Shown here: piece by piece, positions 12,001 through 53,061 of the stretch | Numbering within the stretch: position 1 is the first letter of the stretch | Layout of the letters: the number at the start of each line of letters is the position of its first letter | IMG/VR virus record: IMGVR_UViG_3300032053_000060 | Location: 1-64,000 of that record | Source of the DNA: a virus | Strand: one strand, 5' to 3' | DNA length: 64,000 nucleotides | The notes under the pieces: generated by a model | Databases searched by the model: none | Told to the model about the DNA's origin: nothing | What the model saw: the letters and a program-made list of their open reading frames with translations, nothing else | Made by a program: the position numbers and the translations under genes

Positions 12001-15000
12001 AATATCCATCAACTTTGTCTGCTGAAACCGGAGAAGTCCAAGATAAATCTGCACCATAACCACTAATAGGTATTACTGTCAATCCTGTAGGTTGACTTGG
12101 AGAAGTGATATCTGGAACTCCATTAGAAACTGTATATTCATATGCACCAACATCTGGAGGAACATCTCGTAGAGTTCCATCAGCATCAGTATTTGGAAGA
12201 TTGCCAGAACTCTTACCAGTATTTAGTAATGTCAACGCACCAGAAGTTAAATGTGCATTTCTGCGGGCATAACTATAATCATTTGCATAAGAAAAGTTTG
12301 CAAAATTTGTTGTATAATCACCAGCATTGTAATTTAATGCTATGTTTCCACCACTAATCATATTACTTACTGGTATTACGAAGTTTTCAGCTACGTTATT
12401 AAATGCACTAGTTCCATACGTTGGAGAAAGTATTGTTATAATTGGAACTTGGACACCAGATTGACTTCCACTTGTAGCTCTAAGTATAGTATTAAAGTTT
12501 ATTCTACTCTTTGTACCAGCAGTTTTTAAGTATATTCCATAAGGGTGGTCAATTATTATAATATTATTTTCAATCGATACGTTATATGCAGAAGTACCAG
12601 TTGCTGATGGTATAATACCATAAATTCTACCTTCTGGACCACTAGCAGCATTCCAAGCTCTACTTAAATGTGCTTGTTTAGGATTTGTAAATGCTATAAA
12701 TTCATTATTTTTAATATATGAAATTGGATTAGTGCTAGAAGCTCCTAACAATAACATTCTACCTTCAGTATTATTTCCACTATTAACTGTTGCGAATTTA
12801 GTGTGAGCATTTAAAACTTTATTATATTCAAATGTAGCATAATCTGATTGTAATGTTACTGCCGCTGTTGAAGTTGTACCTATTGCGAAATCTTCAATTA
12901 TATTATGACCAATATAAGCACTAGTAGATCCCGAATACGATTCTATGCCGCCTATATTGTATAAATGATTTCCTCTAAAAGTATTTCCTAATCCATAATT
13001 TTTAATACCAGTACCTATACCAGCTTCTGTTATCCAATTCGTATCAGTCCAACTTGAAGTATCTTGTGCGCCATATATAGTACAATTTTCAATTGTTATA
13101 TAACTTGAATTATTACCAACTCCGGTATATGTGGTTACAGCTTTATTAGCATTAAATATACCAGTTATATCAGCATGTCCAGATGGGGTGTTTGCTCTAC
13201 TTATTGTTAAACCTTTGAAATTCCATCGATTAGCATTTCTTAAAGTTAAACTACGAATAACTGGAGTATGTCCAGGCATTGGTAATACATATACATCAGC
13301 ACTTGCTGCAATATTTCCAGAAGAAATATATGGAGTTCCGTGGTATCCACGATATAGATAAATTCTATCACCAGGATTAAACGTCTTAGCATTTACAACA
13401 TCGGCTAACGTATTCCATGGTTGACGTATAGTGCCAGGATTATTAATATTACCAATTAATGGATTTACATAAAATTCGGTTTGAGTAGTTGTGACTCCTG
13501 CTGATGTTGTTAATGTAATAATGTTACTAAATGATGATTCGTTATTTGATGTATCTTTTGATTTAACTTTATAAACATATTCAGTATTATCAATTAATCC
13601 AGTATCAGAATATGATAATCCTGTAGTAAATGCGATTGGATTAACGAAAGAATTTCTATATACATTATATCCACTAACAGCAACGTTATCAGTAGAGGCG
13701 TTCCAAGATAACGATATTGACGACGATGATGACACTTGACCAGATAATGAAGGAGTAGTTGGTCCTGTTATATCACTGGTAATTGGAACAGTTGTAGTTG
13801 CGGTAATAGAATTGCTGTAAACAGATTCATTATTTGAACTATCAACGGCTGCAACATTGTAAATATAAGGAGTATTTTGAGTTAATCCAATATTTAAATA
13901 AGACAATCCAGTTACAGAAGTTATGATTGACGAATTTCTATAAACATTATATGAAACTACAGCAACGTTATCGGTCGAAGATGTCCATATTAAATTAACT
14001 GAGGTTGGAGTAATTGTTCCTGTTGATAATACTGGAGAAGAAGGTAGCTCTGTATCAGTTGTGGTATCATAAGAAACATCGCTAAAATTTGATATATTTC
14101 CTAATCCGTCTAATGCTCTAATTTTATAATAATATGTTACACCAGAATTTAATCCAGTATCATTCACATCATTGCTATTGTACGCAATACCAGATAGCCT
14201 TAATGAAAATCCACTTGTATCAGAAGTTAAACTTGAATATATGTTATAACTACCATTACTATCAATATCTGTAGTTGCATCCCAAGATATTGATATACTG
14301 TTAGGTCCAGAATTTATAACTGCAAAGTTTTGTGGTATTTGTAAAGTTCTACCAGTTGTTATAGTTTGGGTGGTACTATATGCTGAAGTATTTCCAGATA
14401 AATCAAAAGATTTAACTTTATAAGTATAAACAATATTTTCAGATAATCCAGTATCAGTATAATAATTTTGAGTTGATCCAGTTATTTCTATTAAATTTCT
14501 TGCTAATATATAACCAGCTAATCCAACTCCACCAATATTATCAGTTGAAGCATTCCACGTTATATATGTGCTAGTTGAAGATAATGTTGATACTGATAAT
14601 CCAGTTGGAACAGAAGGGGCAACTAAATCTTCTGACGATGATGTTATTATATTTACAATATTACTAGCATCTGATAAATTATTATAAGCATCTTTTGCTT
14701 TTAATGTGTAATTATATGAAGAATTTGAAACTATGGTTGTATCAGTATAATTTAATACTCCGTCAACAACCGTGGCTAATAAATTTGAATCTCTATAAAC
14801 ATTATATGCAACTACTTCAAAATTATCCGTCGCCGCATCCCATAATAATTGTGCAGACGATGTAGTTAATGTTCCTGCTGATAATGTTGGAGTAGATGGC
14901 GCAATTAAATCTGGACCAGCAGTTATACCATTACTTAAAGTGGAAACATTGTAAAATTTATCAAAAGATTGAATAGTATATGTACCACTTGCTGCGGGAT

Positions 15001-16555: not shown

Positions 16556-16597
16556 TTTTTCAATCTCCCTCAAAATTTAGTTTCTTATTGATATAGT

Positions 16598-24220: not shown

Positions 24221-27001
24221 TTATGCGAAACTTTCTAATGCTTCTCCACCAGTCGATTTCTCCGGTTTAGATGTGGTTTCTTTTGATTTTCCGGTAATAT
24301 CAGTACCACTTTCAGTTTCTGGCGCTGAAGGTTCTTCTGATGAACTGTCCATGTCTCCTAAAGATCCACCACTAGATCCACCACTAGATCCACCACTAGA
24401 TCCACCACTAGATCCTCCTGGAGCAATTTTATTTTTATTTAATTTTAACGCTTCTTCATTTTCTAATATTTCGTCAGGCTTAAATTTTAAGAATCTTCGC
24501 ATTAACCATGTTTTATCAAACATTGGAGTTTGTCCAGCATCTCCAGGTTCTGTATATGGCATAAATCTTTCGAAATTTTCGGCTCTTTGTGTTAATAATT
24601 CCGTTTCAATATAATCTTCAAATATATTATTACTATTAAACTTTATATGAAAATCTTTTTCTGTTATGCCATATTCATCAGCATATCCCTTTAATCTTAA
24701 ATGACTTAGATATATTTGTAAAAATACATTTGCAAATCTATTAACAAACTTTTGAACCATTTTATGAAAACGAACCTCTTCTCTAGTTATATCAGAAGTA
24801 TCTCCTAAGCTAAATCCAGAATCTTGCTCCATTCTAGACATTGGAATTCTTAGGGATCTAAATAGATTTTTTTGCATATAAACTATATCGTCAATTTGTC
24901 CAAGATTATCTCCACCTGGAAGAGTTTCAATTGATGACCCTTTACCATCTTGAGATGGAAACCAATAATCCTCAATCATTGCCATAGTATCAACAGTTTG
25001 TGATGCTTCACCCGTAGTTGGATCATACGTTTTTCTTTGGCGATATTTTTTCATTAATCCTTGAACGTAAGCTTCAGCTTTTTGTTTTGGTAATTTGCCT
25101 ACTTCAATTTTAAATATACGTCTCTCAGGAGCACGACAATTGTGTACCGGACAAGCATTTACAATGAAATTATGATGTTCAGATTCAACTTCAATATCAT
25201 AAACTTCACGCTTACCAACTGGGTCTATTGAAATAACATTTTCAAAATCTTCTAATGGGATTTTTGTTAAAGTTACTGTCCAAGAATCTTTACCAGAAAT
25301 GACTCTATTTTCAAATTTATGCGATCTTGAAGGTCTATGAGTTATTTTTCCAGATGATAATCCCAAAGAACACCATAATTCTTTTATATCTTCAATTAAT
25401 TTTTTATTTGCTAATTGAATAGTTGAAAACCATGTTCCATTATTTGTATATCGTTCACATCCATCAGCATCAGATAATCCTTCAATAAATGCCAATTTTA
25501 TAGAATTTGATGAATTAAAAACCCATTCTGGTATTCTTTTATTAGCAAATCCTTTTATATAACCTAAATCTTCAAATATTTTTACAGCTATAGTAGAATT
25601 AGTATAATAATTTGTATATTTTCTATTTTTGGATGTTGAACGATTACAAACGCCAAAATACTTAGACAATAAGCCACTATATTCTACATTAAGTTCTGGA
25701 TGTTCACCTTCAGCAAATACTACATTATTTTTTGAAATACTTCCATCACCTATCAAAAATCCAAATAATTTAGCAAAATCTTCATCTACATATTCTGGAA
25801 CATTTTTTATTTCTTGAGTTTTAAACGTTAATTCTTTTAATTTACAAACTTGTTCACCAAATTGTGTGTTTATTTTAGTTTTTTTAGTTTTTTCTTCAAA
25901 TTTAGCATTTATAAATTGATGTCGTTTAATTTCTAATTTTCCAGCTTCTACGTAATCAATTTTTTCAGTTGTAGTATCTTTAACTAATATTGGATGATCT
26001 GGAGTACATATCAATTCATTATGTCTAGTTCTTACTTTTATAGTTTCTTTTTCTCCACTATTCCACTTATTTGTAACTTTTGTAGGTATTAATATTCCAT
26101 TATTATAAGAATATACATTATCACCTATATTTAAATCTTTAATATATTTGTATCCATTTTCAGTTTTAACTCTAGATTCAGAATCTAAACAAAGTCTATA
26201 AATGACAAGAGAATCTTCTAATTGTTTAAGTTTTCTATAATCAACTTTCGCATAATCTAAGAATGATCTAACTATTTTAGTTTGTCTATCTGGATAATCA
26301 TATAATCCAGAATTGGCATAAGCCACCATTTGAGTAGGCATAACTAAAATATTTGAAGGACCTTTATGTACGAATTGGTATATATTATCAGATTCTATTT
26401 CTTCCCATATAGGATGAGTGAACTCCGGTCTTAATTTTTTTATCTTTAAAATTCCTCGATCTTTTGCAGTTTCTGGGTCAACAACCTTTTCAAAGGAAAT
26501 TTCACCATCAATCATATATTCCATCCACCATTCATTAATATACTTATCAGCTTCCAAAACTTCTTTATATATGTATTTCCATTCTTTATTTAAATTTTTT
26601 AATATATTCTCATTTTGCATGAATTTTGGATTTTTTATAAATAAATTCATAAAATTTCCATCATCATCAAAGTTTATAGCCTCATCTTCTATTTCGCCTA
26701 ATGCAAATGAGATTACAGGAAACATTGACATATCACGACGTGACGATAACATCGAATTTTTATTAGATTCTGTTTTATATATAAATGAATTTAATTGACC
26801 AGTCTGTTTTTGAAATTCTGCTGAAGATATAGTAGAAACGTCGTCCATTTCACTTGCTGCTGGGATATTCGGCTTTCCATACTTATCTTCTTGTCGGTCA
26901 AAAACATTAAAATTTCTTTTGTAATGTGTTGCTTGAGCCTGTTTAGACCAATTATTGCGCTTAACAAAACTATCTATTACTTTAGAAAACATATTTGCCA
27001 T
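24221..27001 (-). CDS. 20: Portal vertex protein gp20 carrying an intein
   Basis: A 926-residue precursor. Removing residues 271-621 leaves a 575-residue portal (T4 gp20 has about 524), the dodecameric ring through which DNA enters the head. Portal signatures are LEDSLVIYR joined to RAPERRIFKIEVG after splicing, KYRQRKTYDP, EDYWFPS, GS.IETLPGG.NLG and RIPMSRM.QDSGFS. The intein begins with Cys at residue 271 and ends in His-Asn before Cys, interrupting the conserved IYR..RAPERR. The C-terminus is an added Gly-Ser repeat linker followed by an acidic tail. The start has GGGGA about 8 nt upstream and a TATAAATA box 63 nt upstream. Confidence 0.93.
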   Translation of the reverse strand: MANMFSKVIDSFVKRNNWSKQAQATHYKRNFNVFDRQEDKYGKPNIPAASEMDDVSTISSAEFQKQTGQLNSFIYKTESNKNSMLSSRRDMSMFPVISFALGEIEDEAINFDDDGNFMNLFIKNPKFMQNENILKNLNKEWKYIYKEVLEADKYINEWWMEYMIDGEISFEKVVDPETAKDRGILKIKKLRPEFTHPIWEEIESDNIYQFVHKGPSNILVMPTQMVAYANSGLYDYPDRQTKIVRSFLDYAKVDYRKLKQLEDSLVIYRLCLDSESRVKTENGYKYIKDLNIGDNVYSYNNGILIPTKVTNKWNSGEKETIKVRTRHNELICTPDHPILVKDTTTEKIDYVEAGKLEIKRHQFINAKFEEKTKKTKINTQFGEQVCKLKELTFKTQEIKNVPEYVDEDFAKLFGFLIGDGSISKNNVVFAEGEHPELNVEYSGLLSKYFGVCNRSTSKNRKYTNYYTNSTIAVKIFEDLGYIKGFANKRIPEWVFNSSNSIKLAFIEGLSDADGCERYTNNGTWFSTIQLANKKLIEDIKELWCSLGLSSGKITHRPSRSHKFENRVISGKDSWTVTLTKIPLEDFENVISIDPVGKREVYDIEVESEHHNFIVNACPVHNCRAPERRIFKIEVGKLPKQKAEAYVQGLMKKYRQRKTYDPTTGEASQTVDTMAMIEDYWFPSQDGKGSSIETLPGGDNLGQIDDIVYMQKNLFRSLRIPMSRMEQDSGFSLGDTSDITREEVRFHKMVQKFVNRFANVFLQIYLSHLRLKGYADEYGITEKDFHIKFNSNNIFEDYIETELLTQRAENFERFMPYTEPGDAGQTPMFDKTWLMRRFLKFKPDEILENEEALKLNKNKIAPGGSSGGSSGGSSGGSSGGSLGDMDSSSEEPSAPETESGTDITGKSKETTSKPEKSTGGEALESFA
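24363..24410 (-). repeat. Four perfect 12-nt tandem repeats coding Gly-Ser linker
   Basis: The plus-strand unit gatccaccacta is repeated four times without change and then partially. It encodes Gly-Gly-Ser-Ser repeats near the portal C-terminus. Slippage would change linker length in steps of four residues without breaking the frame. Confidence 0.9.
25139..26191 (-). mobile_element. Intein with LAGLIDADG endonuclease in the portal gene
   Basis: A 351-residue bifunctional intein. It starts CLDSESRVKTENGYK, has the Hint block B motif CTPDHPILV, two LAGLIDADG motifs (LFGFLIGDG and FIEGLSDADG) and the end block VYDIEVESEHHNFIVNACPVHN shortened here to its ends VYDIEV and PVHN, followed by Cys+1. 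All splicing residues are present, so self-splicing and homing both look possible. The insertion lies in the most conserved part of the portal, as is usual for inteins. Confidence 0.92.
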
Positions 27002-34495: not shown

Positions 34496-34520
34496 AAACA
34501 TATAAACTTAGTATGTTTTT
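34496..34520 (+). terminator. Possible terminator of the non-coding RNA
   Basis: AAACATA pairs with TATGTTT (7 bp, 9-nt loop), and the 3' arm runs into a short T tract. It overlaps the 3' end of the convergent gene at 34508. It is AT-rich and therefore only a moderate terminator. Confidence 0.4.
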
Positions 34521-35119
34521 AAAAAATTATTTTTAACTTTTGGTGCCCCTAAATTTCTTCTAGCTACACCACCAACAGCAATGCCTTTGTAAGTACTAGT
34601 ACTAACATTTCCTAATTTATATTTACCTAATAAAAATTTAGACCATTCTTCATCTAATTTTTCTAATTCGTTTATATCATTAAAATATATAGGAACTTCA
34701 AAGGATTTCAATTCTTTAAAATAATTATTTAAAGAAATTTTATCTTCATTTGTTAATAATCCATCTTTAGAAATTATAATTTTATGGTTTCCTGGTTTAT
34801 TTCCAATTTTTAATGGTAATTTGTCTGCATCTGGTTTTATTCTTACAATTCCACTAATTAATAAGTTTTTATCATTAATAGATGTTGACAATGGTAATAT
34901 ACAATCCCAATACATGTTATCAGCCATATTTGTATAACCTATAATTTCTCCATAATCGAAAGGATTAAGTTCACTACTACCCCATTTATAAATAGTCTTT
35001 TTTAAATATTCAAGTCTAATTGGTAAAGGGGTTTGTATTCCAAGTTTAACTATATCACTCAATGAATAATTTTTTTTAACAGATTCGTATAATAATGATA
35101 AAAATTTAGCTGGGTTCAT
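34508..35119 (-). CDS. Unknown protein, faint resemblance to phage inorganic pyrophosphatase-like domains
   Basis: A 203-residue protein not firmly recognised. I chose the ATG at 35119 because GGAAGA lies before it; an upstream in-frame TTG overlaps that site. The stretch DYGEIIGYTNMADNMYWDCILP recalls the YG.I..T..ADG...DVFV block of phage pyrophosphatase-like domains, but one of the three usual aspartates is missing. The C-terminal 40 residues (YKGIAVGGVARRNLG) are basic and glycine-rich. It is convergent with the non-coding RNA and divergent from nrdA. A phosphohydrolase role is only a suggestion. Confidence 0.6.
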   Translation of the reverse strand: MNPAKFLSLLYESVKKNYSLSDIVKLGIQTPLPIRLEYLKKTIYKWGSSELNPFDYGEIIGYTNMADNMYWDCILPLSTSINDKNLLISGIVRIKPDADKLPLKIGNKPGNHKIIISKDGLLTNEDKISLNNYFKELKSFEVPIYFNDINELEKLDEEWSKFLLGKYKLGNVSTSTYKGIAVGGVARRNLGAPKVKNNFLKTY

Positions 35120-35155
35120 AATATCTTCCAATAATAGTATTTATATTTTTATATC

Positions 35156-35183
35156 TTGATTATTATTATTATTAAGATATAAT
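35156..35183 (+). promoter_or_regulatory. sigma70-type promoter of nrdA
   Basis: TTGATT, 16-nt spacer, TATAAT, about 80 nt before the nrdA start. It probably drives nrdA-N, the GIY-YIG gene, nrdA-C and nrdB. Confidence 0.65.
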
Positions 35184-35262
35184 TTAAATATATAAACTTT
35201 AAAAATAATATTGTTATTGATAAATAACAATCCAGATAAAATAAAGATAAGAGGATGCCTAT

Positions 35263-36909
35263 ATGACGGATAATACTATTGATATAAAAATGCCTGTTTT
35301 AATAAAGAAACGTTCTGGTAAAAACGAAAAGTTGGATATTAATAAAATTCATAAAGTTCTATCATGGGCTACTGAAGGATTAAAGAATGTCTCAGTTTCA
35401 GATATTGAAGTAAACGCTAGTTTACAATTAAAGGATGGAATTAAAACTTCACAAATTCATAAAGTTTTAATTGAGTCTGCTGTAAGTTTAATATCTGCTA
35501 AAACTCCAAATTACCAATTTGTAGCTTCTAGACTTTTAAATTATTATATTAGAAAAGAAACTTTTGGGTTATACACTTCAAAAGAGTTACCACATTTAAA
35601 TAAAATTATAGAAAAAAATGTAAAACTTAAAATTTATGATAAAGTAATTCTTGAACAATATACTAAATTGGAAATTGATTCTATAAATGATTATATTCAT
35701 CATGATAGAGATTTTAATTTTGCTTATGCTGGTATACAACAAATGGTTGATAAATATTTATTAAAAGATCGAATAACTAATATTTTACATGAAACTCCAC
35801 AATATACTTTTATGGTCATAGCAATGACTGTATTTGGACATTACCCAAAAGATACAAGAATTGATTATATCCGAAGACTTTATAATCAAATTTCATTATT
35901 TAAAATTAATTTACCAACTCCTATATTATGTGGCATTAGAACACCATTGCGACAATATAGTAGTTGTACATTGATTGACATTGGTGATTCATTACCTAGT
36001 ATATTTTCATCTAACACTGCTGTTGGATATTATACTGCTAAAAGAGCAGGTATTGGTCTTAATATTGGTCGCGTTAGAGCAATTGGATCTTCAATACGAA
36101 ATGGTGAAGTTGTTCATACAGGATTAATACCATATTTAAAAATGTTAGAAGCTACAACTAAATGTACTACACAAAACGGAGTTCGTGGTGGATCATCGAC
36201 TACATATTATCCATTTTGGCATTATGAAGTAGAAGAATTATTAGTATTAAAAAATAATAAAGGTAATGACGAAAATAGAATTCGTAAAATGGATTATGGA
36301 ATACAATTATGTAGATTATTTTATAAAAGAGTAAAAAATAATGAAGATATTACTCTTTTTAGTCCGTCTGATGTAAATGGGTTATATGATAGCTTTGGAG
36401 ATAATACTAAATTTGAAGAATTATATTTAAAATATGAAAAAGATCCGCTTATAAGACATAAAAAAATAAATGCTAGAGATTTATTTTCAAAAATTGCACA
36501 AGAAAGAATTGAAACTGGAAGAATTTATATTATGAATATAGATCATACTAATGAACATAGTTCATTTAAAGATCATATAAGTATGTCTAACTTATGCGTT
36601 GTTGGTGATACTAAAATTGATATAAAAATTAATGAAATAACCCAAATTACTACCATTGAAGAATTATTTAAAACGTATAATAAAAATGATGATATAAAAA
36701 TAATGAGTATGGCATTAAATAATGAAAAACAATATTCAAATTTAGATAATGTATTTAAAACTGGTGAAACAGACGAATTAATAGAAATAACAGATGAAAA
36801 AACAGGTAAAAAATTAACATGTACATTAGAACATAAAATATATACTAAAAATAGAGGTTATGTTGAAGCTAAACATTTAAATGAAGATGATGAATTATGT
36901 ATTTTTTAA
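35263..36909 (+). CDS. nrdA: Ribonucleotide reductase large subunit NrdA, N-terminal part fused to split-intein N half
   Basis: A 548-residue protein: 444 residues of class Ia NrdA followed by 104 residues of intein N half. It begins with an ATP-cone (KKRSGKNEKLDINKIHKVL). QYSSCTLIDIGDSL holds the conserved redox Cys (C225 of E. coli), and RAGIGLNIGR and GVRGGSSTTYYPFW are typical. The extein ends at SNL, exactly where the catalytic thiyl Cys (C439 of E. coli) should follow. The rest (CVVGDTKIDI, TCTLEHKIYT) is the intein N half, ending at a stop. The enzyme therefore needs trans-splicing with the product at 37280-38326. RBS: AGAGG before the ATG. Confidence 0.93.
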   Translation: MTDNTIDIKMPVLIKKRSGKNEKLDINKIHKVLSWATEGLKNVSVSDIEVNASLQLKDGIKTSQIHKVLIESAVSLISAKTPNYQFVASRLLNYYIRKETFGLYTSKELPHLNKIIEKNVKLKIYDKVILEQYTKLEIDSINDYIHHDRDFNFAYAGIQQMVDKYLLKDRITNILHETPQYTFMVIAMTVFGHYPKDTRIDYIRRLYNQISLFKINLPTPILCGIRTPLRQYSSCTLIDIGDSLPSIFSSNTAVGYYTAKRAGIGLNIGRVRAIGSSIRNGEVVHTGLIPYLKMLEATTKCTTQNGVRGGSSTTYYPFWHYEVEELLVLKNNKGNDENRIRKMDYGIQLCRLFYKRVKNNEDITLFSPSDVNGLYDSFGDNTKFEELYLKYEKDPLIRHKKINARDLFSKIAQERIETGRIYIMNIDHTNEHSSFKDHISMSNLCVVGDTKIDIKINEITQITTIEELFKTYNKNDDIKIMSMALNNEKQYSNLDNVFKTGETDELIEITDEKTGKKLTCTLEHKIYTKNRGYVEAKHLNEDDELCIF

Positions 36910-37384
36910 ATAATAAATTAGGATAATATACTATTATGTACAGTGTTTATAAACATACTTTTAAAGAAACTAATAAATGTTATATTGGTTATACGAAATT
37001 TTTAATAATAGAACGATTAAAAAAACATCATACAAATGCAATGTCTAATATACAAACAAAGTTTTATAGAGCAATAAGAAAATATGGAATAGAAAGTATT
37101 TCTTCTGAGATTTTATTTACAACCGAAGATGAAATATTAGCAAAACAAAAAGAAATAGAATTTATAAAAATGTATGATTCATTTAAAAAAGGTTATAATA
37201 TGACATTAGGTGGTGATGGAAAAGCTAATTTTTTAATAAATTCAAAACTAAAAAAATCTAACTATATAGAAGGAAGATTATGATTAAAATTAAAAGAATA
37301 AAAAAAGATATTAATATACCAGTATATGATATTACAGTTAAAGAAACTTCAAATTTCTTTGCAAATAATATATTAATTCATAAT
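36595..37384 (+). mobile_element. Fractured split intein in nrdA with an embedded GIY-YIG gene
   Basis: The intein N half (36595-36906, 104 residues) carries Cys1 (CVVGDTK) and block B with TLEHK. The C half (37280-37384, 35 residues) carries VYDITV, the F/G blocks and LIHN before Cys+1. Between them lie a stop codon and a complete GIY-YIG endonuclease gene. All standard splicing residues are present on two separate polypeptides, so the product should trans-splice to a 757-residue NrdA, the usual length. Confidence 0.92.
36936..37283 (+). CDS. GIY-YIG homing endonuclease between the nrdA intein halves
   Basis: A 115-residue protein that is essentially one GIY-YIG nuclease domain: YSVYKH (GIY position), CYIGYT (YIG position), a conserved Arg in IIERLKKHH, a Glu in QKEIEFIKMY and a closing GYNMTLGGDG. 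It has no visible separate DNA-binding domain. It starts 26 nt after the nrdA-N stop with a weak AGGA site, and its TGA overlaps the ATG of nrdA-C. It probably makes the whole fractured intein mobile. Confidence 0.85.
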   Translation: MYSVYKHTFKETNKCYIGYTKFLIIERLKKHHTNAMSNIQTKFYRAIRKYGIESISSEILFTTEDEILAKQKEIEFIKMYDSFKKGYNMTLGGDGKANFLINSKLKKSNYIEGRL

Positions 37385-38326
37385 TGTACGGAAATAACCT
37401 TGCCAACAACTCCAATAAATACTATTGATGATTCTGAAGGCGAAATAGCGTTATGCGTTTTATCCGCTGTTAATTTAGGACAAATAAATGATTTAGATGA
37501 CTTAGAAGAGACTTGCGAATTAATAGTTCGTACATTAGATTTCGTAGTTGAACATCAAGAATACCCAGTTAAATCTGCTGAACATATGAAAAGTCGAAGA
37601 AGTATTGGAGTTGGATTTACAAATTTAGCTTATTATCTTGCTAAAAATAAAGTAGGATATGATAAAACTGGTTATGAATTAATAGATAAAACTGCTGAAG
37701 CATTTCAATATTATTTACTTAAAGCATCTGTTAAATTAGCAAAAGAATTTGGTCCTTGTGCATATTTTAATAAAACGAAATATTCTGATGGAATTCTTCC
37801 AATTGACACGTATAATAAAAATGTTGATAAATTTTATAAAAGAGAATTGACATACGATTGGGAATTATTACGAAAAGATATTATACAATATGGTATTAGA
37901 AATTCTACATTATCAACTCAAATGCCATGCGAATCTTCTTCAGTACTAAATAATTCTACAAATGGCATAGAACCACCAAGAGGTTTGGTATCTACTAAAA
38001 AATCTAAGCAAGGGCTTCTAAAACAAGTTGTACCAGAAGCTAATAAGATTGGGCATTTTTATACTACAGCTTATGAAATGTCTAATGATGGATACTTAGA
38101 AATAGTTTCATTAATACAAAAATATTTTGATCAGGCTATGTCTGTAAACAATTATTATGACTTTACAAAATATGAAGATGGAGAATTGCCATTATCTATT
38201 GTTTTAGACAATATTATGTATGCTTATTCGTTGGGAATAAAAACTTTATATTATGCAAATTCCAATGATGGTAAAACTGACTCAGATAAAGAATCTGATT
38301 GCTTAGGTGGCGCTTGTTCGGTATAA
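37280..38326 (+). CDS. nrdA: Split-intein C half fused to NrdA C-terminal part
   Basis: A 348-residue protein: 35 residues of intein C half (IPVYDITV, NFFANNILIHN) followed by 313 residues of NrdA. The extein opens with CTEITLPTTP; this first Cys is the thiyl-radical Cys, with the essential Glu two residues on. IALCVLSAVNLG holds the second redox Cys (C462 of E. coli), GIKTLYYANS holds the two radical-transfer tyrosines, and the C-terminal CLGGACSV supplies the shuttle cysteines. GAAGGAAG precedes the ATG, which overlaps the stop of the GIY-YIG gene. It is not active until spliced. Confidence 0.93.
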   Translation: MIKIKRIKKDINIPVYDITVKETSNFFANNILIHNCTEITLPTTPINTIDDSEGEIALCVLSAVNLGQINDLDDLEETCELIVRTLDFVVEHQEYPVKSAEHMKSRRSIGVGFTNLAYYLAKNKVGYDKTGYELIDKTAEAFQYYLLKASVKLAKEFGPCAYFNKTKYSDGILPIDTYNKNVDKFYKRELTYDWELLRKDIIQYGIRNSTLSTQMPCESSSVLNNSTNGIEPPRGLVSTKKSKQGLLKQVVPEANKIGHFYTTAYEMSNDGYLEIVSLIQKYFDQAMSVNNYYDFTKYEDGELPLSIVLDNIMYAYSLGIKTLYYANSNDGKTDSDKESDCLGGACSV

Positions 38327-38344
38327 TATCATTAAGGATAAATT

Positions 38345-39412
38345 ATGAAACAAATAATTAATTTAAAACAAATAGATTTTACAAAAGAACCTATGTTTTT
38401 TGGTGAAGGTTTAAACTTACAACGGTATGATTCTTTTAAATATAAAAAGTTTTTTGATTTATTTAAAGAACAGATGTCGTTTTTTTGGCGACCAGAAGAA
38501 ATATCTTTAATGAAAGATATTAACGATTATAAAAATTTAACAGATCATGAGCAAAAGATTTTCACTAGAAATCTTTTGTATCAAACATTATTAGATTCGG
38601 TACAAGCCAGAGCGATACCTTATATATCTGAACGTACATCTTTGCCAGAAATAGAAGCATCATGTTCTGCATGGCAATTTTTTGAACAAATACATTCATA
38701 TTCATATACTTATATAATAAAAAATATTTATGCGAACCCGTCAGAAGTATTTGATGAAGCATTAAAAAATGAAGAAATTAAAAAAAGAGCATTAAGTGTT
38801 ACAAAATATTATAACGATTTAATAAATTCTTATGGTGAATCCGATATAGATCAAAAGAAAAAATTATATTTAACGTTAATATCTGTAAATATTTTAGAAG
38901 GTATTAGGTTTTATGTGTCATTTGCATGTTCTTATTGTTTTGCGCAAAACAAAAGTATGGAAGGTAATGCTAAAATAATTTCTTTAATAAATAGAGATGA
39001 AAATTTACATTTAGCAATGACGCAAAATATCATAAAAATACTTAAAAATAATGAAAGTGAAGGATTTGTTGAAATTGCAAAAGAATTAGAAGATGAATGT
39101 ATAAAAATGTATCAAGATGCAGCAAATGAAGAAATTGCATGGGCGCAATATCTTTTTTCTGAAGGAAGTATGTTAGGATTAAATGCTGAAATATTAGAAC
39201 TATATATGAAATATTTAACAAATAAACGAATGACTTCCATTGGCATGAAACCAATATTTGGTAAAATTGATAATCCTATTAATTGGATTAAACAGTGGAC
39301 AGAAGGAAAAGACGTTCAAATCGCTCCACAAGAGACTGAAATAGAGTCATATAAAATTTCATCTATTAAAAATGATATAAATAAAATAAATTTTGATAAA
39401 TTCGTTTTATAA
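38345..39412 (+). CDS. nrdB: Ribonucleotide reductase small subunit NrdB (class Ia)
   Basis: A 355-residue di-iron subunit that makes the tyrosyl radical for NrdA. Metal ligands appear in LLDSVQ (Asp), FFEQIHSYSYTY (Glu and His), ILEGIRFY (Glu) and NRDENLHLAM (Glu and His); the radical Tyr is in HSYSYTYII, as in E. coli (HSRSYTHII). It starts 18 nt after nrdA-C with an AAGGA site and no terminator between, so the two are co-expressed. Confidence 0.95.
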   Translation: MKQIINLKQIDFTKEPMFFGEGLNLQRYDSFKYKKFFDLFKEQMSFFWRPEEISLMKDINDYKNLTDHEQKIFTRNLLYQTLLDSVQARAIPYISERTSLPEIEASCSAWQFFEQIHSYSYTYIIKNIYANPSEVFDEALKNEEIKKRALSVTKYYNDLINSYGESDIDQKKKLYLTLISVNILEGIRFYVSFACSYCFAQNKSMEGNAKIISLINRDENLHLAMTQNIIKILKNNESEGFVEIAKELEDECIKMYQDAANEEIAWAQYLFSEGSMLGLNAEILELYMKYLTNKRMTSIGMKPIFGKIDNPINWIKQWTEGKDVQIAPQETEIESYKISSIKNDINKINFDKFVL

Positions 39413-39419
39413 AAATATA

Positions 39420-39447
39420 TTGATTAATAGTAAAAAAGATGTATAAT
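39420..39447 (+). promoter_or_regulatory. sigma70-type promoter of the class II reductase
   Basis: TTGATT, 16-nt spacer, TATAAT, just after nrdB and about 98 nt before the reductase ATG. Separate control of the two reductases is therefore possible. Confidence 0.7.
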
Positions 39448-39544
39448 TTAATCATGATAAAAGTTAATATTAATTTTTATTTTAAGGGTGATAAATAACC
39501 TTACCATTATTAATTTTAAAATAAAAAGAAATAGGAGTTTAATT

Positions 39545-42500
39545 ATGTCGATTAAAGCTTTACAAGAATATACTCGTTATGCTAAATATGCAAAATTTTT
39601 ACCAGAAAAACAACGTAGAGAAACCTGGGATGAACAAGTTGATAGAGTTTTTGATATGCATGCTAAAAAATTAGGTGATAAATTAGAATTAATAAAGGAT
39701 GATTTTGAATTTGCTAAAAATATGATGCGTCGTAAACGTATATTAGGATCTCAAAGAGCCTTACAGTTTGGTGGTGAACCAATTTTAAAGAAAAATGTTA
39801 GAATTTATAATTGTTTTGATAAAAACACCAAATTTATTACAAATAAAGGAACGAAATCATTTAAAGAATTTAATGATGGCGATGATGTTACAGTTTTATC
39901 TGGTCTTGGTAATTGGAAACCAGCTAAAGTCAAATCATATGGTGAACAATCGTTAAATAAAATTATTATAAAAAGAGGATTAGCTGAATATACAATAAAC
40001 GCCACTAAAAATCATAGGTGGATATTAAAAGATGGCAGTGAAACAACAAATTTAAAAGTTGGAGACAGCTTACAATTTGCTCCAAATATAACAAATTCAG
40101 AATATGATGATTTTACACCGTTCCAAAAACTTTATTGGTGTTATGGGTATGTTTATGGTGATGGAACCAAATTAAAGAATAAAAAAGGAGAATATGTGTA
40201 TTCTATGGTTAGATTATGTAAAAAAGATTCAAAATATCAAAATAGATTTACTGAAATGGGATTTAAAACAAATACAAATTTATCATTAAACGGTGATTTT
40301 TTTGCATACACTGGATCTTATTTGAAAACTTGTCCAAATTTAGAAACGGATTCTAAAGAATTAATATACGCTTTTATAAAAGGATATTTAGCTGCTGACG
40401 GTAATAAAAACAGATCAAATGATGTGTTACGAACATATGAATCTATTCAATCATCAGAAAAATCTCACATAGAATTTTTAAGAAAAGCGTTACCAATGTG
40501 TGGATATTACATCGTATCTGAAAAAGATTTAACTGGTGAAGAAACTAATTTTGGTATTAGACCATATACTATACAATTTAGAATAATTAATACATATGGA
40601 AAAACTGCCGTATCCTTTAAAGTAGATGAAATAATAGAAAATATAAAAACGGAAATGGTATGGTGTCTTGAAGTAGAGGATGATAAATCGTTTGTTTTAC
40701 CACACGGGTTTGTTACTGGAAATTGCTGCGCTTCATATTGTGATCGTCCTAGATTTTTCCAAGAAGCATTATTTAATTTATTAGCTGGAACTGGTGTAGG
40801 GTTTAGCGTTCAATTAAAAGATATTGAAAAATTACCAACAATAAATAAATTAAATGATGAAAAAGTCATTTATAATATAGAAGACAGTATTGAAGGATGG
40901 TCTGATGCTTTAGGAATATTAGTATCATCATATTTTACTAACAATCAACCATTTGAAGAATATTTTGGAAAAACAATACAATTTAACTTTGATAAAATAA
41001 GACCATCAGGCTCCCCTTTAAGTTGGGGTGGTAAAGCTCCAGGACCAAATGCTTTGAAAAAAAGTTTAGAAAAAATTAAAAATATATTCGAAATTGCTTT
41101 AAATGATGGAAGAAATAAATTAAAACCTATTGAAGCATATGATATAGTTATGCATGCTTCAGATGGTGTTATTTCTGGAGGAGTTCGTAGATCAGCAACT
41201 ATTTGCTTATTTTCTCCATTCGATGAAGAAATGTGTAAAGCTAAAACTGGAGATTGGTTTATTAAAAATCCGCAAAGAGGAAGATCGAATAACTCCGCAA
41301 TTTTAGTAAGAAACAAAACTACAAAAGAAGAATTTAATAAATTATTTAAATCAACAAAAGAGTTTGGTGAACCTGGATTTGTATGGGCTGAAAATGATAG
41401 GGTTCTTTTTAACCCATGTTGTGAGATTTCACTTTATGGATATACAGAAGATAGTGAATCTGGATGGGAATTTTGTAATTTATGTACTATAAATATGAAA
41501 AAATGTAAGACAGAACAAGATTTTTTTGATGCATGTAAAGCATCTTCAATATTAGGAACTATTCAAGCTATGTATACAGATTTTCCATATTTAGGAAATG
41601 TGACTGAAAAAATAGTTCGTAGAGAAGCCTTATTAGGATGTTCTATTACTGGTTTTATGGATAATCCAGAAATAGCATTAAATCCAAAAATTCAAAAAAA
41701 TGGTGCCGAAATAATAGTAAAAGAGAATGAAAAAATTTCTAAAATATTAGGGATAAATGCGGCAGCAAGAGTTACGACAGTAAAACCTGAAGGCTCGGCA
41801 TCATGTTTATTAGGAAGTTCATCTGGCATTCATCCACATCATGCAAAAAGATATATTAGACGAGTACAAGCTAATAAATCTGAATTTCCTTTACAGTATT
41901 TTAAATTACATAATCCTAAAGCTATAGAAGAGTCTGTTTGGTCACAAAATAAAACAGACGATGTTATTTCATTTTTATGTGAAGTTCCAGAAGGAGCTAG
42001 AGTTAAAACCCAAATTGGAGCAATCGAATTATTAAAAAATGTAATGTCTACACAACAAAATTGGATAGAGTATGGCACTACAAAAAGAAGTGTACAACCA
42101 TGGTTGAGACATAATGTAAGTAATACAATAACTGTTAAAGATTCAGAATGGGATGAAGTTGAAAAATTTATTTATGACAATAAACAATGGTTTGCTGGAA
42201 TTTCGTTATTACCAGCTAGTGGTGATTTGGATTATCCACAAGCTCCATTTTCAACAATTTTAACAGAAAAAGAAATAATATTGGAATTTGGCGAAGGTGC
42301 TTTATTTGCGTCTGGATTAATTGTGGACGGACAACACGCATTTGATAATAATTTATGGAAAGCGTGTGATAGCGCATTGGGTATTGGAGAAAAATTAGAA
42401 TTACCAGTGTTATCATCGGAACCAACAATGCCTATAAAAAATGGGTATACCAACAAAGTATACACACAAAAATTAAAAATATACACTGAAGAATTGACCA

Positions 42501-42811
42501 AGTTTTTTAATGATAAAGAAAAATATGATAAAATTTTCATGAAATTAGATTGGAATAGAAGATTTCAACAATTTTCTGATAGATATGTTGAAGGCAATTT
42601 GCGTAAATGTTGTCATTTATTAAAATATGTATCATTATGGAAATTATGGTTAGATTTAAAACGTGAATATGTTGATGTAGATTGGTCATTAGCTGTTGAA
42701 GAAGAATATAGTATTGATATGAGTACTATAGCTGGCGCAGCATGTCAAGGTGGTGCGTGTGAAATAGGAGATTTAGGCGATTCTATAAAATCAGCAAAAG
42801 AAAATAAATGA
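39545..42811 (+). CDS. Class II (adenosylcobalamin-dependent) ribonucleotide reductase, RTPR-like, with intein
   Basis: A 1,088-residue precursor; without the intein it has 784 residues, similar to the monomeric class II reductases (Lactobacillus RTPR 739). Matches include FLPEKQRRETWDEQV, GTGVGFSVQ, FNFDKIRPSGSPL followed by a Gly-rich AP GP block, GVRRSAT, NPCCEISL (catalytic Cys), TTVKPEGSASCLLG and the C-terminal CQGGACEI pair of thiols. The enzyme would use vitamin B12 and need no oxygen or small subunit. I start at 39545 because TAGGAG precedes it; a GTG at 39488 has no ribosome site. The intein lies before the conserved Cys of YNC. Confidence 0.9.
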   Translation: MSIKALQEYTRYAKYAKFLPEKQRRETWDEQVDRVFDMHAKKLGDKLELIKDDFEFAKNMMRRKRILGSQRALQFGGEPILKKNVRIYNCFDKNTKFITNKGTKSFKEFNDGDDVTVLSGLGNWKPAKVKSYGEQSLNKIIIKRGLAEYTINATKNHRWILKDGSETTNLKVGDSLQFAPNITNSEYDDFTPFQKLYWCYGYVYGDGTKLKNKKGEYVYSMVRLCKKDSKYQNRFTEMGFKTNTNLSLNGDFFAYTGSYLKTCPNLETDSKELIYAFIKGYLAADGNKNRSNDVLRTYESIQSSEKSHIEFLRKALPMCGYYIVSEKDLTGEETNFGIRPYTIQFRIINTYGKTAVSFKVDEIIENIKTEMVWCLEVEDDKSFVLPHGFVTGNCCASYCDRPRFFQEALFNLLAGTGVGFSVQLKDIEKLPTINKLNDEKVIYNIEDSIEGWSDALGILVSSYFTNNQPFEEYFGKTIQFNFDKIRPSGSPLSWGGKAPGPNALKKSLEKIKNIFEIALNDGRNKLKPIEAYDIVMHASDGVISGGVRRSATICLFSPFDEEMCKAKTGDWFIKNPQRGRSNNSAILVRNKTTKEEFNKLFKSTKEFGEPGFVWAENDRVLFNPCCEISLYGYTEDSESGWEFCNLCTINMKKCKTEQDFFDACKASSILGTIQAMYTDFPYLGNVTEKIVRREALLGCSITGFMDNPEIALNPKIQKNGAEIIVKENEKISKILGINAAARVTTVKPEGSASCLLGSSSGIHPHHAKRYIRRVQANKSEFPLQYFKLHNPKAIEESVWSQNKTDDVISFLCEVPEGARVKTQIGAIELLKNVMSTQQNWIEYGTTKRSVQPWLRHNVSNTITVKDSEWDEVEKFIYDNKQWFAGISLLPASGDLDYPQAPFSTILTEKEIILEFGEGALFASGLIVDGQHAFDNNLWKACDSALGIGEKLELPVLSSEPTMPIKNGYTNKVYTQKLKIYTEELTKFFNDKEKYDKIFMKLDWNRRFQQFSDRYVEGNLRKCCHLLKYVSLWKLWLDLKREYVDVDWSLAVEEEYSIDMSTIAGAACQGGACEIGDLGDSIKSAKENK
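39812..40723 (+). mobile_element. Intein with LAGLIDADG endonuclease in the class II reductase
   Basis: A 304-residue intein. It starts CFDKNTKFIT, has a block B with ATKNHRW, two LAGLIDADG-type motifs (WCYGYVYGDG and FIKGYLAADG) and ends VWCLEVED...FVTGN before Cys+1. The residue before the final Asn is Gly and not the usual His, so splicing may be slower or depend on another residue. Otherwise it looks intact. Confidence 0.88.
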
Positions 42812-42868
42812 AATCGCAAACGTATAAAATAACCTCACGAACGAGTTTGGTATAAGTGGAAACGATTT
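42811..42868. other. Nested inverted repeats between convergent genes
   Basis: AAATCG (42811-42816) and CAAAC (42817-42821) can pair with CGATTT (42863-42868) and GTTTG (42845-42849). The element sits between the convergent class II reductase and metallopeptidase genes and may end transcription. There is no clear T run. Confidence 0.3.
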
Positions 42869-42876
42869 GGAAAACA

Positions 42877-43383
42877 TTAAACATCTTTAGACAATAGACT
42901 TATTGTATATATTTCTGGATTTTGTAATCCGAACATATATACAATATCTCCAGCTTTAGTGTTAGCTTCAGCTTCTAATTCTAGATTCCTACCATTTAAA
43001 TCTTTAGGAATTTTATTTAACGTATTTTGCCAGTAATGAGTTAATTCATGTGCAATAGTTCTTATAATATCTGCTAATCCTCTATTTTTACCATATACAT
43101 TAATAATATTACCATTTAAATCAAAAGAACCATAAGTCATACCTTCTTTTCTTGTAAATAAAATATTAATTTTTGGTATTTCTTCTAATTCTAATTGTTC
43201 TTTTATGAAATCCATAAATTTTTGAATTATCATTATATTATTATCATTAATATTAAATTCTGGTTCAAAAGATATATTTTGTTTATCAGATTCAGTTAAT
43301 GGTATATACGATTCTTCTAAAATTTGATCTATTTCAAGTTCTGACTCTGTAAATTTATTTATTAATTTAGTTTTAAATGACAT
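42877..43383 (-). CDS. HExxH zinc metallopeptidase
   Basis: A 168-residue probable zinc metallopeptidase. The active-site helix is AHELTHYWQ with H112, E113 and H116; a third ligand could be E137 or E139 in LELEAEAN. The first 45 residues look like a flexible leader. No signal peptide is seen. A TATAAATA box lies 19-26 nt before the ATG and AAGGA lies closer, so late expression is likely. It may cut a virion protein or a host envelope protein; the substrate is unknown. Confidence 0.75.
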   Translation of the reverse strand: MSFKTKLINKFTESELEIDQILEESYIPLTESDKQNISFEPEFNINDNNIMIIQKFMDFIKEQLELEEIPKINILFTRKEGMTYGSFDLNGNIINVYGKNRGLADIIRTIAHELTHYWQNTLNKIPKDLNGRNLELEAEANTKAGDIVYMFGLQNPEIYTISLLSKDV

Positions 43384-49962: not shown

Positions 49963-52900
49963 ATGTATTCATCTGTTTATTTATCAAGACGAACGTCTAA
50001 GATTCATTACTGGGAATATAATGAAAAGGGTAAGAAGTGTTATAAAAGTTGCCCTGCCCCGATGTATTTTTATATGAAAAGTGAAGACGGCGAATATACG
50101 TCTATTTATGGTGATAAATTAAAAAAAGTAGAATTTGATTCGTATGAAAAATATAAAAGTTCTAAGGAAATGTTTAAAACTTCAGGTCATGAATTATTTG
50201 AATCTGATGTTTCTATAGAAAATAGGTTTATATTAGATAATTATTCTAAAGAAAAAGTTAATATCCCAAAATATGATATTTATTTTATCGATATTGAGGT
50301 GCATTCAGAAGAGGGATTTCCACTTCCAGAAAAAGCCGACCATCCAATTACAATCATAACAATTTATAGTACTGCGCAAAATAAATATTTTATATTTTCT
50401 GAAAAATTATTCGATACTAAATTTTTACCAGAAAATGCTGAAGTCAATTTTTATAATGGAGATGAACAAAAATTACTAATAGGGTTTATAGAATTTATAC
50501 GAAAATCTCATCCAGACGTACTTAGCGGCTGGAATTGTATGCCATTTGATATTCCATACATTATTAATCGTGGATATAAATTGCTAGGAGAAGAAATAAC
50601 CAATTCTTTGTCTCCTATTAAACAAATTAGAAAAGAAACCCGAAAAACCCGTTGGGGATTACCTTACGAAATTTATAAAATAATGGGTATTAATATTATC
50701 GATTATTTAGAATTGTATCGAAAATATGAAGCAGGCGAGCGTGAATCATATAAATTAGATTTTATTGCAGAACTAGAATTAGAAAAGGGAAAAATTAAAT
50801 ATGAAGGTTCGTTAAAAGAATTGTATCACAATGACTGGCAAAAATATTGCGAATACAATTTCGTTGACGTACAATTACTTGTGGAGTTAGATAGAGTTAA
50901 ACAATTTTTTAATATTTTATTTACAGTTTGTTGTAATTGTAGAGTCCCATTTGAACAATACGATAAAACAGTTAGAGTTTTAGACGGAGCATTTATAAGT
51001 AAATTGGGAAAAAATAAAATTATTTTGCCTGACGCGAAGGAAGTTGATGAAACTGCTGAAAAATTTGAAGGTGCATTCGTATTCGATACTATTAGTGGTG
51101 CATATGATTGGGTGGTATCCTTTGATGCCACATCACTATATCCAAGTGTTATGTTATTACATAATATTTCTCCAGAAACTAAAGTTTTAGTTATTAATCC
51201 TATATCAGTTTCTAAAGTGTGTGATATATTAGACGGAAAAGAATCATCTGAACAAGAACAAAATTCTATGGCATATGAAGATAAATCAGTAAAAGATATG
51301 GCGGAATTCATACTTAAAAATAATTATTCGATATCTTCAAATGGCGTAGTATATAGACATGATAAACAAGGTGTTGTATCGTCATTTATTGCTGAATGGT
51401 TTGAAAAACGTCAATATCATAAAAAATTAATGAAAAAAGCTAAAGAAGCGGGAAATCACGACGAAATGGTTAAACAAGATGGGTTACAATATAATTATAA
51501 AATTTTGTTGAATTCTACGTATGGTTATGTTGGTACTAGATATAGTAGAATGTTCGATTTACATAATGCAGAGGCTGTTACTAAAACTGGTCAAGAATGT
51601 ATTAAAAAATCTATGGATTCTGTAAATTATTTTTTCCAAAATAAATGGGAAAATAGTAAAGTTGGAATGAAAGTAAATGCTAAAAATACTGGAAATTTAG
51701 TAATTTGTGGAGATACTGACAGTATAAGTCATGACTCTATCATAACTTATGATAAAAATAAATATACAATACGAGATTTTTTTAATAAATTATACAAAGA
51801 ACAATTTAATAATTATAAAATTGGTACAAATTATAGAGAATTTATTTTTCCAGAAAATGTAAAATTACCATATTATGACGAAGAATTGAAAAAAATAAAA
51901 CTTGGTAAAGTTCAATATGTTGAAAAACATATTACTAATAAAAAAATGTATAAAATAAAAACAAAATCTGGAAAATATATTAAAGTTACAGAAGATCATT
52001 CTGTTATGGTTTTAAAAGATGGAAAATTAATTCAAAAAAAACCAACAGAATTAATTAAAACTGATAAAATAATCACAATAAAATTGCCAGATTATGAAAT
52101 TGATGAAATTGAATCCATTGAATTAATTTCTGATGGTACTGAAGAACAAGAAGTATATGATATTGGTATGATAAATACTCCGCATACATTTTTTGCTAAT
52201 GACATTTTAGTACATAATTCTTTATATTTAAATTGTGGTGATATATTAAAATCGTTTAAATATCCACATGAAAATGATATTCCAAAATGTAAAGAATTTT
52301 TAGATAAAAAAGTTATTACTTTAATAAATTCTATAATTGAGCCAGCAATTGAACAATTAACCACAAAGAGATTAAATTCTCCAAAAAATACTATATTTTT
52401 CAAACGTGAAATGATCGCACGTAGAGCTATATTTTTGAAAAAGAAAAATTATGTTGCTTGGGTTATGAATATGGAAGGTGTAGATGTAAAAGATATTGAA
52501 AATCCAAAAGATTCATTAAAAGCTAAAGGTATCGAATTAATAAAATCTACCTTTGGAAAAGATTTAAAAAATTTCATGAGAGATTATATTTTTGAATTAT
52601 TACATCATTTAGATAATTCTAAATCTAACGATAAAATGAAACAAATAAAATCCAAATTTAAAGAATTGAGTATAGAATCTATAGCTAAAATTGGTAATAT
52701 AAAAGAATTTTATAAGTATTTAGATTCAAATCAGTTACCAATCAAAGGTGCAACAAGTGCAGCTAAAGCCTCTGCTGGACATAACTTATTACTAAAACAG
52801 AAAAATTTACAATCAATATATCCTGAAATTCGTGAAGGTGATAAAATAAAAATAGTATCTTTAAAAGATTGTCCATTTTATAAATTTGATGTTATAGCAT

Positions 52901-53061
52901 TTAAAGATGTTTTGCCTAAAGAATTTAACTTGCATGAGTACATAGACTACGATATAATATACGAGAAGAATTTATTAACCCCATTAAAAAGGTTTTACGA
53001 TGCTTTAAATTGGCAAATACCAAACTTTAACCAAGATGACATATCAGACCTATTCAATTAA
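49963..53061 (+). CDS. 43: Family B DNA polymerase gp43 with a mini-intein
   Basis: A 1,032-residue precursor; splicing leaves 866 residues (T4 gp43 has 898). Proofreading exonuclease: FIDIEVHSEEG (about 107-117), GWNCMPFDIPY (about 188), YNFVDVQLL (about 297). Polymerase: motif A SFDATSLYPSVM (about 385), motif B LLNSTYGYVGTRY (about 520), motif C CGDTD|SLY, cut by the intein at residues 587-752. The lysine-rich KKKNYV and the C-terminal tail, which in T4 binds the clamp gp45, are present. AAGGGG precedes the ATG. It is the core of the replisome with gp41, gp32, gp45 and gp44, all in this window. Confidence 0.95.
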   Translation: MYSSVYLSRRTSKIHYWEYNEKGKKCYKSCPAPMYFYMKSEDGEYTSIYGDKLKKVEFDSYEKYKSSKEMFKTSGHELFESDVSIENRFILDNYSKEKVNIPKYDIYFIDIEVHSEEGFPLPEKADHPITIITIYSTAQNKYFIFSEKLFDTKFLPENAEVNFYNGDEQKLLIGFIEFIRKSHPDVLSGWNCMPFDIPYIINRGYKLLGEEITNSLSPIKQIRKETRKTRWGLPYEIYKIMGINIIDYLELYRKYEAGERESYKLDFIAELELEKGKIKYEGSLKELYHNDWQKYCEYNFVDVQLLVELDRVKQFFNILFTVCCNCRVPFEQYDKTVRVLDGAFISKLGKNKIILPDAKEVDETAEKFEGAFVFDTISGAYDWVVSFDATSLYPSVMLLHNISPETKVLVINPISVSKVCDILDGKESSEQEQNSMAYEDKSVKDMAEFILKNNYSISSNGVVYRHDKQGVVSSFIAEWFEKRQYHKKLMKKAKEAGNHDEMVKQDGLQYNYKILLNSTYGYVGTRYSRMFDLHNAEAVTKTGQECIKKSMDSVNYFFQNKWENSKVGMKVNAKNTGNLVICGDTDSISHDSIITYDKNKYTIRDFFNKLYKEQFNNYKIGTNYREFIFPENVKLPYYDEELKKIKLGKVQYVEKHITNKKMYKIKTKSGKYIKVTEDHSVMVLKDGKLIQKKPTELIKTDKIITIKLPDYEIDEIESIELISDGTEEQEVYDIGMINTPHTFFANDILVHNSLYLNCGDILKSFKYPHENDIPKCKEFLDKKVITLINSIIEPAIEQLTTKRLNSPKNTIFFKREMIARRAIFLKKKNYVAWVMNMEGVDVKDIENPKDSLKAKGIELIKSTFGKDLKNFMRDYIFELLHHLDNSKSNDKMKQIKSKFKELSIESIAKIGNIKEFYKYLDSNQLPIKGATSAAKASAGHNLLLKQKNLQSIYPEIREGDKIKIVSLKDCPFYKFDVIAFKDVLPKEFNLHEYIDYDIIYEKNLLTPLKRFYDALNWQIPNFNQDDISDLFN
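51721..52218 (+). mobile_element. Mini-intein at the catalytic motif C of DNA polymerase (pol-c site)
   Basis: A 166-residue intein inserted between Asp and Ser of the CGDTD|S(L)Y motif, the same site as inteins in several archaeal family B polymerases. It starts with Ser1 (SISHDSII), has block B with TEDHSV, and ends EVYDIGM...ANDILVHN before Ser+1. No LAGLIDADG or other nuclease motif is seen, so it can splice but not home alone. Confidence 0.9.

What the first reader, a model, noticed from the sequence alone, without database searches (positions are those of the whole stretch)
35263..38326. NrdA is made in two pieces that should be joined by a split intein, with a GIY-YIG endonuclease gene between the halves
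Seen: nrdA-N ends SNL then an intein N half with Cys1 and a stop; a complete GIY-YIG gene follows; nrdA-C begins with an intein C half ending HN before Cys. The exteins add up to 757 residues, a normal NrdA. Known: fractured genes with split inteins were described from marine metagenomes, mostly with Vsr-like endonucleases, and a phage nrdA split by an HNH gene without an intein is known. Inference: this is a hybrid of the two ideas with a GIY-YIG enzyme. The cut lies directly before the thiyl-radical Cys, so no active enzyme exists before splicing.
Basis: partly seen in the sequence, partly recalled or inferred. Interest (0 to 1): 0.92.

Follow-up and report, generated by a model that had tools for sequence, protein, structure and literature searches.

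The report
Phage nrdA split by trans-splicing intein
A T4-like phage makes its DNA-building-block enzyme in two pieces that a split self-splicing protein should join, with a shortened gene-homing enzyme gene left between the pieces; this is a clear new example of a known and, we find, widespread kind.

Summary
nrdA of a T4-like phage is in two genes: 444-residue N-extein (..MSNL) + 104-residue IntN, then a GIY-YIG gene, then 35-residue IntC (..ILIHN) + 313-residue C-extein (CTEI..). All class 1 splicing residues are intact, and the joined 757-residue protein aligns end to end with solved NrdA structures. The record holds no second nrdA. Trans-splicing is very likely (inferred, not measured).

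It is not a new hybrid. A fractured RNR gene with a split intein and a GIY-YIG gene between the halves was published in 2020 (AceL NrdHF, PMC7891396), and NrdA split inteins date from 2009. IMG/VR scans gave about 90 such RNR loci, mostly cut at SNL|C or SNLC|C; 44 carry GIY-YIG genes, 20 HNH, about 20 none. Cultured Klebsiella phage KP13-7 (GIY-YIG) and Yersinia phage TG1 (HNH) have it, unannotated as such.

One correction: the GIY-YIG gene is not complete. It keeps the I-TevI-like catalytic domain (residues 1-94) but lacks the C-terminal domain of nearly all relatives, including its sister locus (260 aa). It sits mid-way in a decay series in which the nuclease erodes while the split intein, and often the nuclease's 3' end carrying the ribosome site for nrdA-C, stay.

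The parts
35263..36594 (+). nrdA N-extein (444 aa, ATP cone + all-alpha domain + first part of barrel, ends MSNL)
36595..36909 (+). IntN, 104 aa, Cys1 (CVVGDT), block B CTLEH, ends DDELCIF + stop
   Evidence: NCBIfam intein_Nterm E 1.8e-8 at residues 445-528; alignment with other split inteins
36936..37283 (+). GIY-YIG endonuclease gene, 115 aa, truncated: catalytic domain residues 1-94, then a 21-residue unstructured tail
37271..37276 (+). Shine-Dalgarno-like AGGAAG for nrdA-C, inside the last codons of the GIY-YIG gene; stop and start overlap (ATGA)
37280..37384 (+). IntC, 35 aa, MIKIKRIKK...VYDITV...FFANNILIHN (blocks F and G, penultimate His and final Asn)
   Evidence: NCBIfam intein_Cterm E 4e-7
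37385..38326 (+). nrdA C-extein (313 aa) starting with Cys+1, the thiyl-radical Cys (CTEITLPT); ends with CLGGAC tail
38345..39412 (+). nrdB, class Ia RNR small subunit (355 aa), partner of NrdA
   Evidence: PRK09101 409 bits, cut-off 346

Best explanation
This is a fractured nrdA gene of a T4-like phage: a naturally split class 1 intein sits between residue L444 and the thiyl-radical Cys, with a free-standing GIY-YIG gene at the usual endonuclease position of the intein. The two halves are translated from separate ribosome sites; IntN and IntC fold together; Cys1 makes the thioester, Cys+1 (the future catalytic Cys) takes the N-extein, Asn35 of IntC cyclises, and a 757-residue NrdA is released that pairs with NrdB. 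The GIY-YIG gene was the homing nuclease that carried the segment into the conserved SNL-Cys codons of nrdA. In this genome it has lost its C-terminal, probably DNA-binding, domain and is most likely decaying; its 3' end is kept because it holds the ribosome site of nrdA-C. Shown by sequence: anatomy, intact splicing residues, truncation, recurrence. Inferred: trans-splicing, homing history, loss of homing, reason the 3' end is kept.
For: Intein models hit exactly at both junctions and the exteins rebuild a full NrdA. The nearest solved intein is NrdJ-1, a split intein of the fractured-gene class (E 1.4e-14). About 90 fractured RNR loci in public contigs, 75 or more of them cut at SNL|C or SNLC|C, with GIY-YIG (44), HNH (20), other or no nuclease. 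Contiguous cis inteins occur at the same site (L105, L138, L154, L192). On the extein tree the labels GIY-YIG, HNH and none need 11, 12 and 13 changes, and distant hosts share close nucleases (L066/L132: exteins 29%, nuclease 63%), as expected of mobile nucleases. The sister locus L077 (NrdA 69% identical, support 100/99) keeps a 260-aa nuclease with a well-modelled helical domain at 103-240; the window's protein stops after the catalytic fold. Other stages of decay: L064 (94 aa), L194 (catalytic half lost), HNH remnants L026/L168/L169, nuclease-free L189, L143, L087, L161 that still carry the nuclease's last codons with the ribosome site.
Against: No splicing was measured. The role of the lost domain as DNA-binding is inferred (no Pfam family on most relatives; no PDB match). 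All catalytic residues of the GIY-YIG domain are still intact, so it may retain some function. The window is one metagenomic contig, so an assembly error at the deletion cannot be fully excluded.
Confidence: 0.88

Rival explanations
1. The GIY-YIG protein is a working minimal homing endonuclease (or nickase) that needs no separate DNA-binding domain or borrows one from another protein.
For: Catalytic fold modelled at pLDDT above 90 and conserved residues (Y16, G18, R27, H31, E73, N88) all kept; intact start and its own upstream AGGA.
Against: Full-length relatives at the same site are mostly 220-260 aa with a conserved C-terminal region; only decayed L064 is shorter; tail 95-115 has pLDDT under 50; several other loci show parallel decay.
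Confidence: 0.15
2. The halves work without splicing, as a non-covalent two-piece NrdA like phage Aeh1, and the intein halves are dead.
For: Aeh1's split NrdA is fully active without a joining step (PMC2988022).
Against: All class 1 splicing residues are intact here and across dozens of loci, with both halves conserved; the unspliced halves would carry 104- and 35-residue appendages beside the catalytic Cys.
Confidence: 0.04
3. A broken nrdA pseudogene or an assembly artefact.
For: Single metagenomic contig; truncated nuclease gene.
Against: Both exteins align end to end with functional NrdA and keep the active-site Cys residues; intact nrdB follows; a 69% identical sister locus has the same organisation.
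Confidence: 0.03
4. The split arrangement is kept because it is useful, for example as a post-translational switch on RNR, rather than as the remnant of a selfish element.
For: The split persists in about 20 loci without a nuclease, some with halves separated by only -1 to 8 bases (L162, L158, L165, L091).
Against: No sign of regulation was tested; simple irreversibility explains persistence as well.
Confidence: 0.1

Closest known systems
AceL NrdHF fractured gene (PMC7891396)
   Same: RNR gene split by a natural split intein with an intervening GIY-YIG putative homing endonuclease in a probable phage contig
   Different: RNR beta (NrdHF) not NrdA; class 3 intein not class 1
Fractured genes of Dassa et al. 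2009 (NAR gkp095; known here only through citing papers), incl. NrdA-2 and NrdJ-1 split inteins
   Same: Conserved enzyme gene broken by a split intein with an endonuclease gene between the halves; NrdA is one of the hosts; NrdJ-1 is the nearest intein of known structure
   Different: First reported mostly from marine metagenomes; here a T4-like phage contig with a truncated GIY-YIG gene
Klebsiella phage KP13-7 nrdA (OP617745, L059)
   Same: IntN / GIY-YIG / IntC order in nrdA in a cultured phage; GIY-YIG 55% identical
   Different: Cut one residue later (SNLC|C); 237-aa nuclease; nrdA further interrupted elsewhere; annotated as hypothetical proteins
Yersinia phage TG1 nrdA (KP202158, L063)
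   Same: nrdA cut at SNL|C by a split intein in a cultured phage
   Different: HNH nuclease between the halves
Phage Aeh1 nrdA with mobE (PMC2988022)
   Same: nrdA in two genes with a homing endonuclease gene between
   Different: HNH, no intein, works as a non-covalent two-piece enzyme

Membership tests
Fractured gene with split intein | Conserved enzyme gene broken in two at an intein with halves on separate ORFs | tested here: met
Fractured gene with split intein | Free-standing endonuclease gene between the halves | tested here: met
   GIY-YIG gene 36936-37283, though truncated
Fractured gene with split intein | Halves join by protein trans-splicing | not testable with these tools
   needs co-expression
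Class 1 split intein | Cys1, TxxH block B, penultimate His, terminal Asn, Cys/Ser/Thr +1 | tested here: met
   C1, CTLEH, H34-N35, C+1 seen; conserved across the set
Class 1 split intein | Split at the canonical endonuclease position (about 100 + 35-40 aa) | tested here: met
   104 + 35 aa
GIY-YIG homing endonuclease | GIY-YIG catalytic fold with conserved Y, R, E, N residues | tested here: met
   (I-TevI catalytic domain, TM 0.71)
GIY-YIG homing endonuclease | C-terminal DNA-binding region | tested here: not met
   C-terminal domain present in full-length relatives, absent from the 115-aa protein
GIY-YIG homing endonuclease | Cuts the intein-free allele and drives homing | not testable with these tools
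   needs cleavage and cross experiments
Class Ia NrdA | ATP cone, all-alpha and barrel domains, catalytic Cys set, C-terminal CxxxxC, NrdB partner | tested here: met
Aeh1-type genes-in-pieces nrdA | Split without intein sequences | tested here: not met
   intact IntN and IntC

The most novel reading that the evidence does not exclude
Fractured nrdA follows a one-way course in phages: a homing nuclease invades, then erodes in many lineages, while the split intein persists and the nuclease's 3' end is kept as the translation-start element of the second half; the window is a mid-decay stage. Trans-splicing then becomes a fixed step in making the phage's RNR long after the selfish element is dead.
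Probability: 0.4. Interest if true: 0.6.

Novelty: new member of a known kind. Interest (0 to 1): 0.42.

Why it matters
It adds a clean, testable natural split intein (104 + 35 aa) whose +1 nucleophile is the enzyme's own catalytic Cys, and shows that fractured nrdA genes are common in uncultured phages rather than curiosities. The graded series (full, truncated, remnant, absent nuclease at one site) makes it possible to ask how split inteins arise and why they are not re-joined once the nuclease is gone.

Tried and rejected
Group I intron in place of an intein: Rfam at E up to 1 found none in 34500-43000. Apparent intein matches in Pelagibacter phages HTVC008M and Mosig (tblastn starting 13 residues before Cys+1) were chance extensions; their nrdA is contiguous and of normal length. 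The GIY-YIG search alone found free-standing relatives without a nearby intein of this type, except a differently split terminase (L042). PDB sequence search with the GIY-YIG protein found nothing; only the fold search did. Bacterial and archaeal genomes gave only weak intein matches, so the group looks phage-bound. Full text of Dassa 2009 is not held.

Full report
The observation. nrdA-N runs 35263-36909: 444 extein residues ending MSNL, then 104 residues beginning CVVGDT. A 115-codon GIY-YIG gene runs 36936-37283. nrdA-C runs 37280-38326: 35 residues ending ILIHN, then 313 residues beginning CTEITLPT. NCBIfam's N-terminal and C-terminal intein models match exactly at the two junctions and above their cut-offs, and NrdA models cover both exteins. 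The joined 757-residue sequence aligns from residue 12 to its end with the solved NrdA 7mdi (E 3e-256) and with the E. coli enzyme structures; in the 7mdi alignment the cut falls in the SNL-C motif, directly before the Cys that family knowledge names as the thiyl-radical Cys (C439 in E. coli). nrdB follows. The 67,841-base record holds no second nrdA, but the record may be incomplete.

The intein. Cys1, the block B T-x-x-H (CTLEH), the penultimate His, the terminal Asn and Cys+1 are all present. The split is at the canonical endonuclease position. The best solved relative by sequence is NrdJ-1, a split intein (E 1.4e-14). Against the four other fractured nrdA loci first aligned, IntN is 34-43% identical, with 25 invariant columns, and IntC with the start of the C-extein 51-57%.

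It is common. Most are RNR large subunits cut at SNL|C (56) or one residue later at SNLC|C (19). Between the halves lie 44 GIY-YIG genes, 20 HNH genes, a few Vsr-like or other genes, and in about 20 cases no gene. Two cultured phages have it: Klebsiella phage KP13-7 with a GIY-YIG gene and Yersinia phage TG1 with an HNH gene. Contiguous inteins also occur at the same site. Bacterial and archaeal genomes gave only weak matches.

The nuclease gene is truncated. In an alignment of 16 nuclease proteins from such loci, the full-length ones share about 130 further C-terminal residues; the window's protein ends about 20 residues after the GGDG motif. The predicted structure confirms a confident catalytic fold for residues 1-94 and a disordered tail; it matches the I-TevI catalytic domain. 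The nearest relative, locus L077 (exteins 69% and 65% identical; sister on the extein tree with support 100/99), has a 260-residue nuclease with an extra, well-modelled helical domain at 103-240. That domain matches no Pfam family or solved structure here; that it binds DNA is inference from how I-TevI and Seg enzymes are built.

A decay series. Other loci show the same erosion: L064 with 94 residues, L194 with only the C-terminal part left, HNH remnants in L026, L168 and L169, and spacers with no gene. Several, including nuclease-free L189, L143, L087 and L161, still hold the last codons of the nuclease (W-x-KGRK or GRIK-like), which contain the purine-rich site in front of the nrdA-C start; 76 of 93 loci have such a site. 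The window keeps ..EGRL-stop with AGGAAG, overlapping the nrdA-C start as ATGA. So the part of the nuclease gene needed to translate the second half seems to be what is spared. On the extein tree the nuclease labels change many times (GIY-YIG 11, HNH 12, none 13), and distant RNRs share close nucleases (exteins 29%, nucleases 63%), which fits mobile nucleases that come and go.

Comparison with what is known. Fractured genes with split inteins and intervening endonuclease genes were described by Dassa et al. in 2009 (cited in PMC7090010, PMC3653736 and others; the paper itself is not held). NrdA split inteins are among them (NrdA-2, PMC7090010; '7 nrdA and 2 nrdJ' interrupted by inteins in ocean data, PMC3653736). 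A fractured RNR gene with a GIY-YIG gene between the halves is described explicitly for AceL NrdHF (PMC7891396). Phage MIJ3 has a split DNA polymerase with an HNH gene (PMC6892783). The window is therefore a new member of a known kind. What is added here is the abundance at the NrdA catalytic-Cys site, the truncation of this nuclease, and the decay series.

Limits. Splicing and cleavage are inferred; the contig is metagenomic; counts depend on searches seeded with five known examples and on motif rules for nuclease type.

Noticed in passing
39488-42811 (+), intein 39812-40723: Next to nrdA/nrdB lies a class II RNR (NrdJ, RTPR-like) with a contiguous 304-residue intein inserted at RIYN|CCASY, before a Cys pair that is probably its active-site Cys; the phage carries both class Ia and class II RNR, each interrupted by an intein.
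   Followed up: partly
24221-27001 (-): The portal protein (gp20-like) gene holds a roughly 350-residue intein (residues about 271-621) between VIYRL and CRAPERRIF.
   Followed up: partly
49963-53061 (+), about 51721-52218: DNA polymerase B has a contiguous Ser1 mini-intein (about 166 residues) inside the catalytic DTD|S motif; with NrdA, NrdJ and portal this phage has four inteins.
   Followed up: partly
L059 1569-7171: Klebsiella phage KP13-7 nrdA is in several pieces: an HNH-type gene after ..KSCSQG, the GIY-YIG split intein, and a second split intein with another endonuclease-like gene near the C-terminus.
   Followed up: no
L061 1483-4825; L042 1926-5660: Terminase large subunit genes split near the intein N-terminus with a GIY-YIG sequence between; in Vibrio phage VP-1 the short IntN runs directly into the GIY-YIG frame.
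   Followed up: no
3050-16573 (-): A 4507-residue repetitive ORF next to the structural genes with many matches to an exoglucanase model.
   Followed up: no
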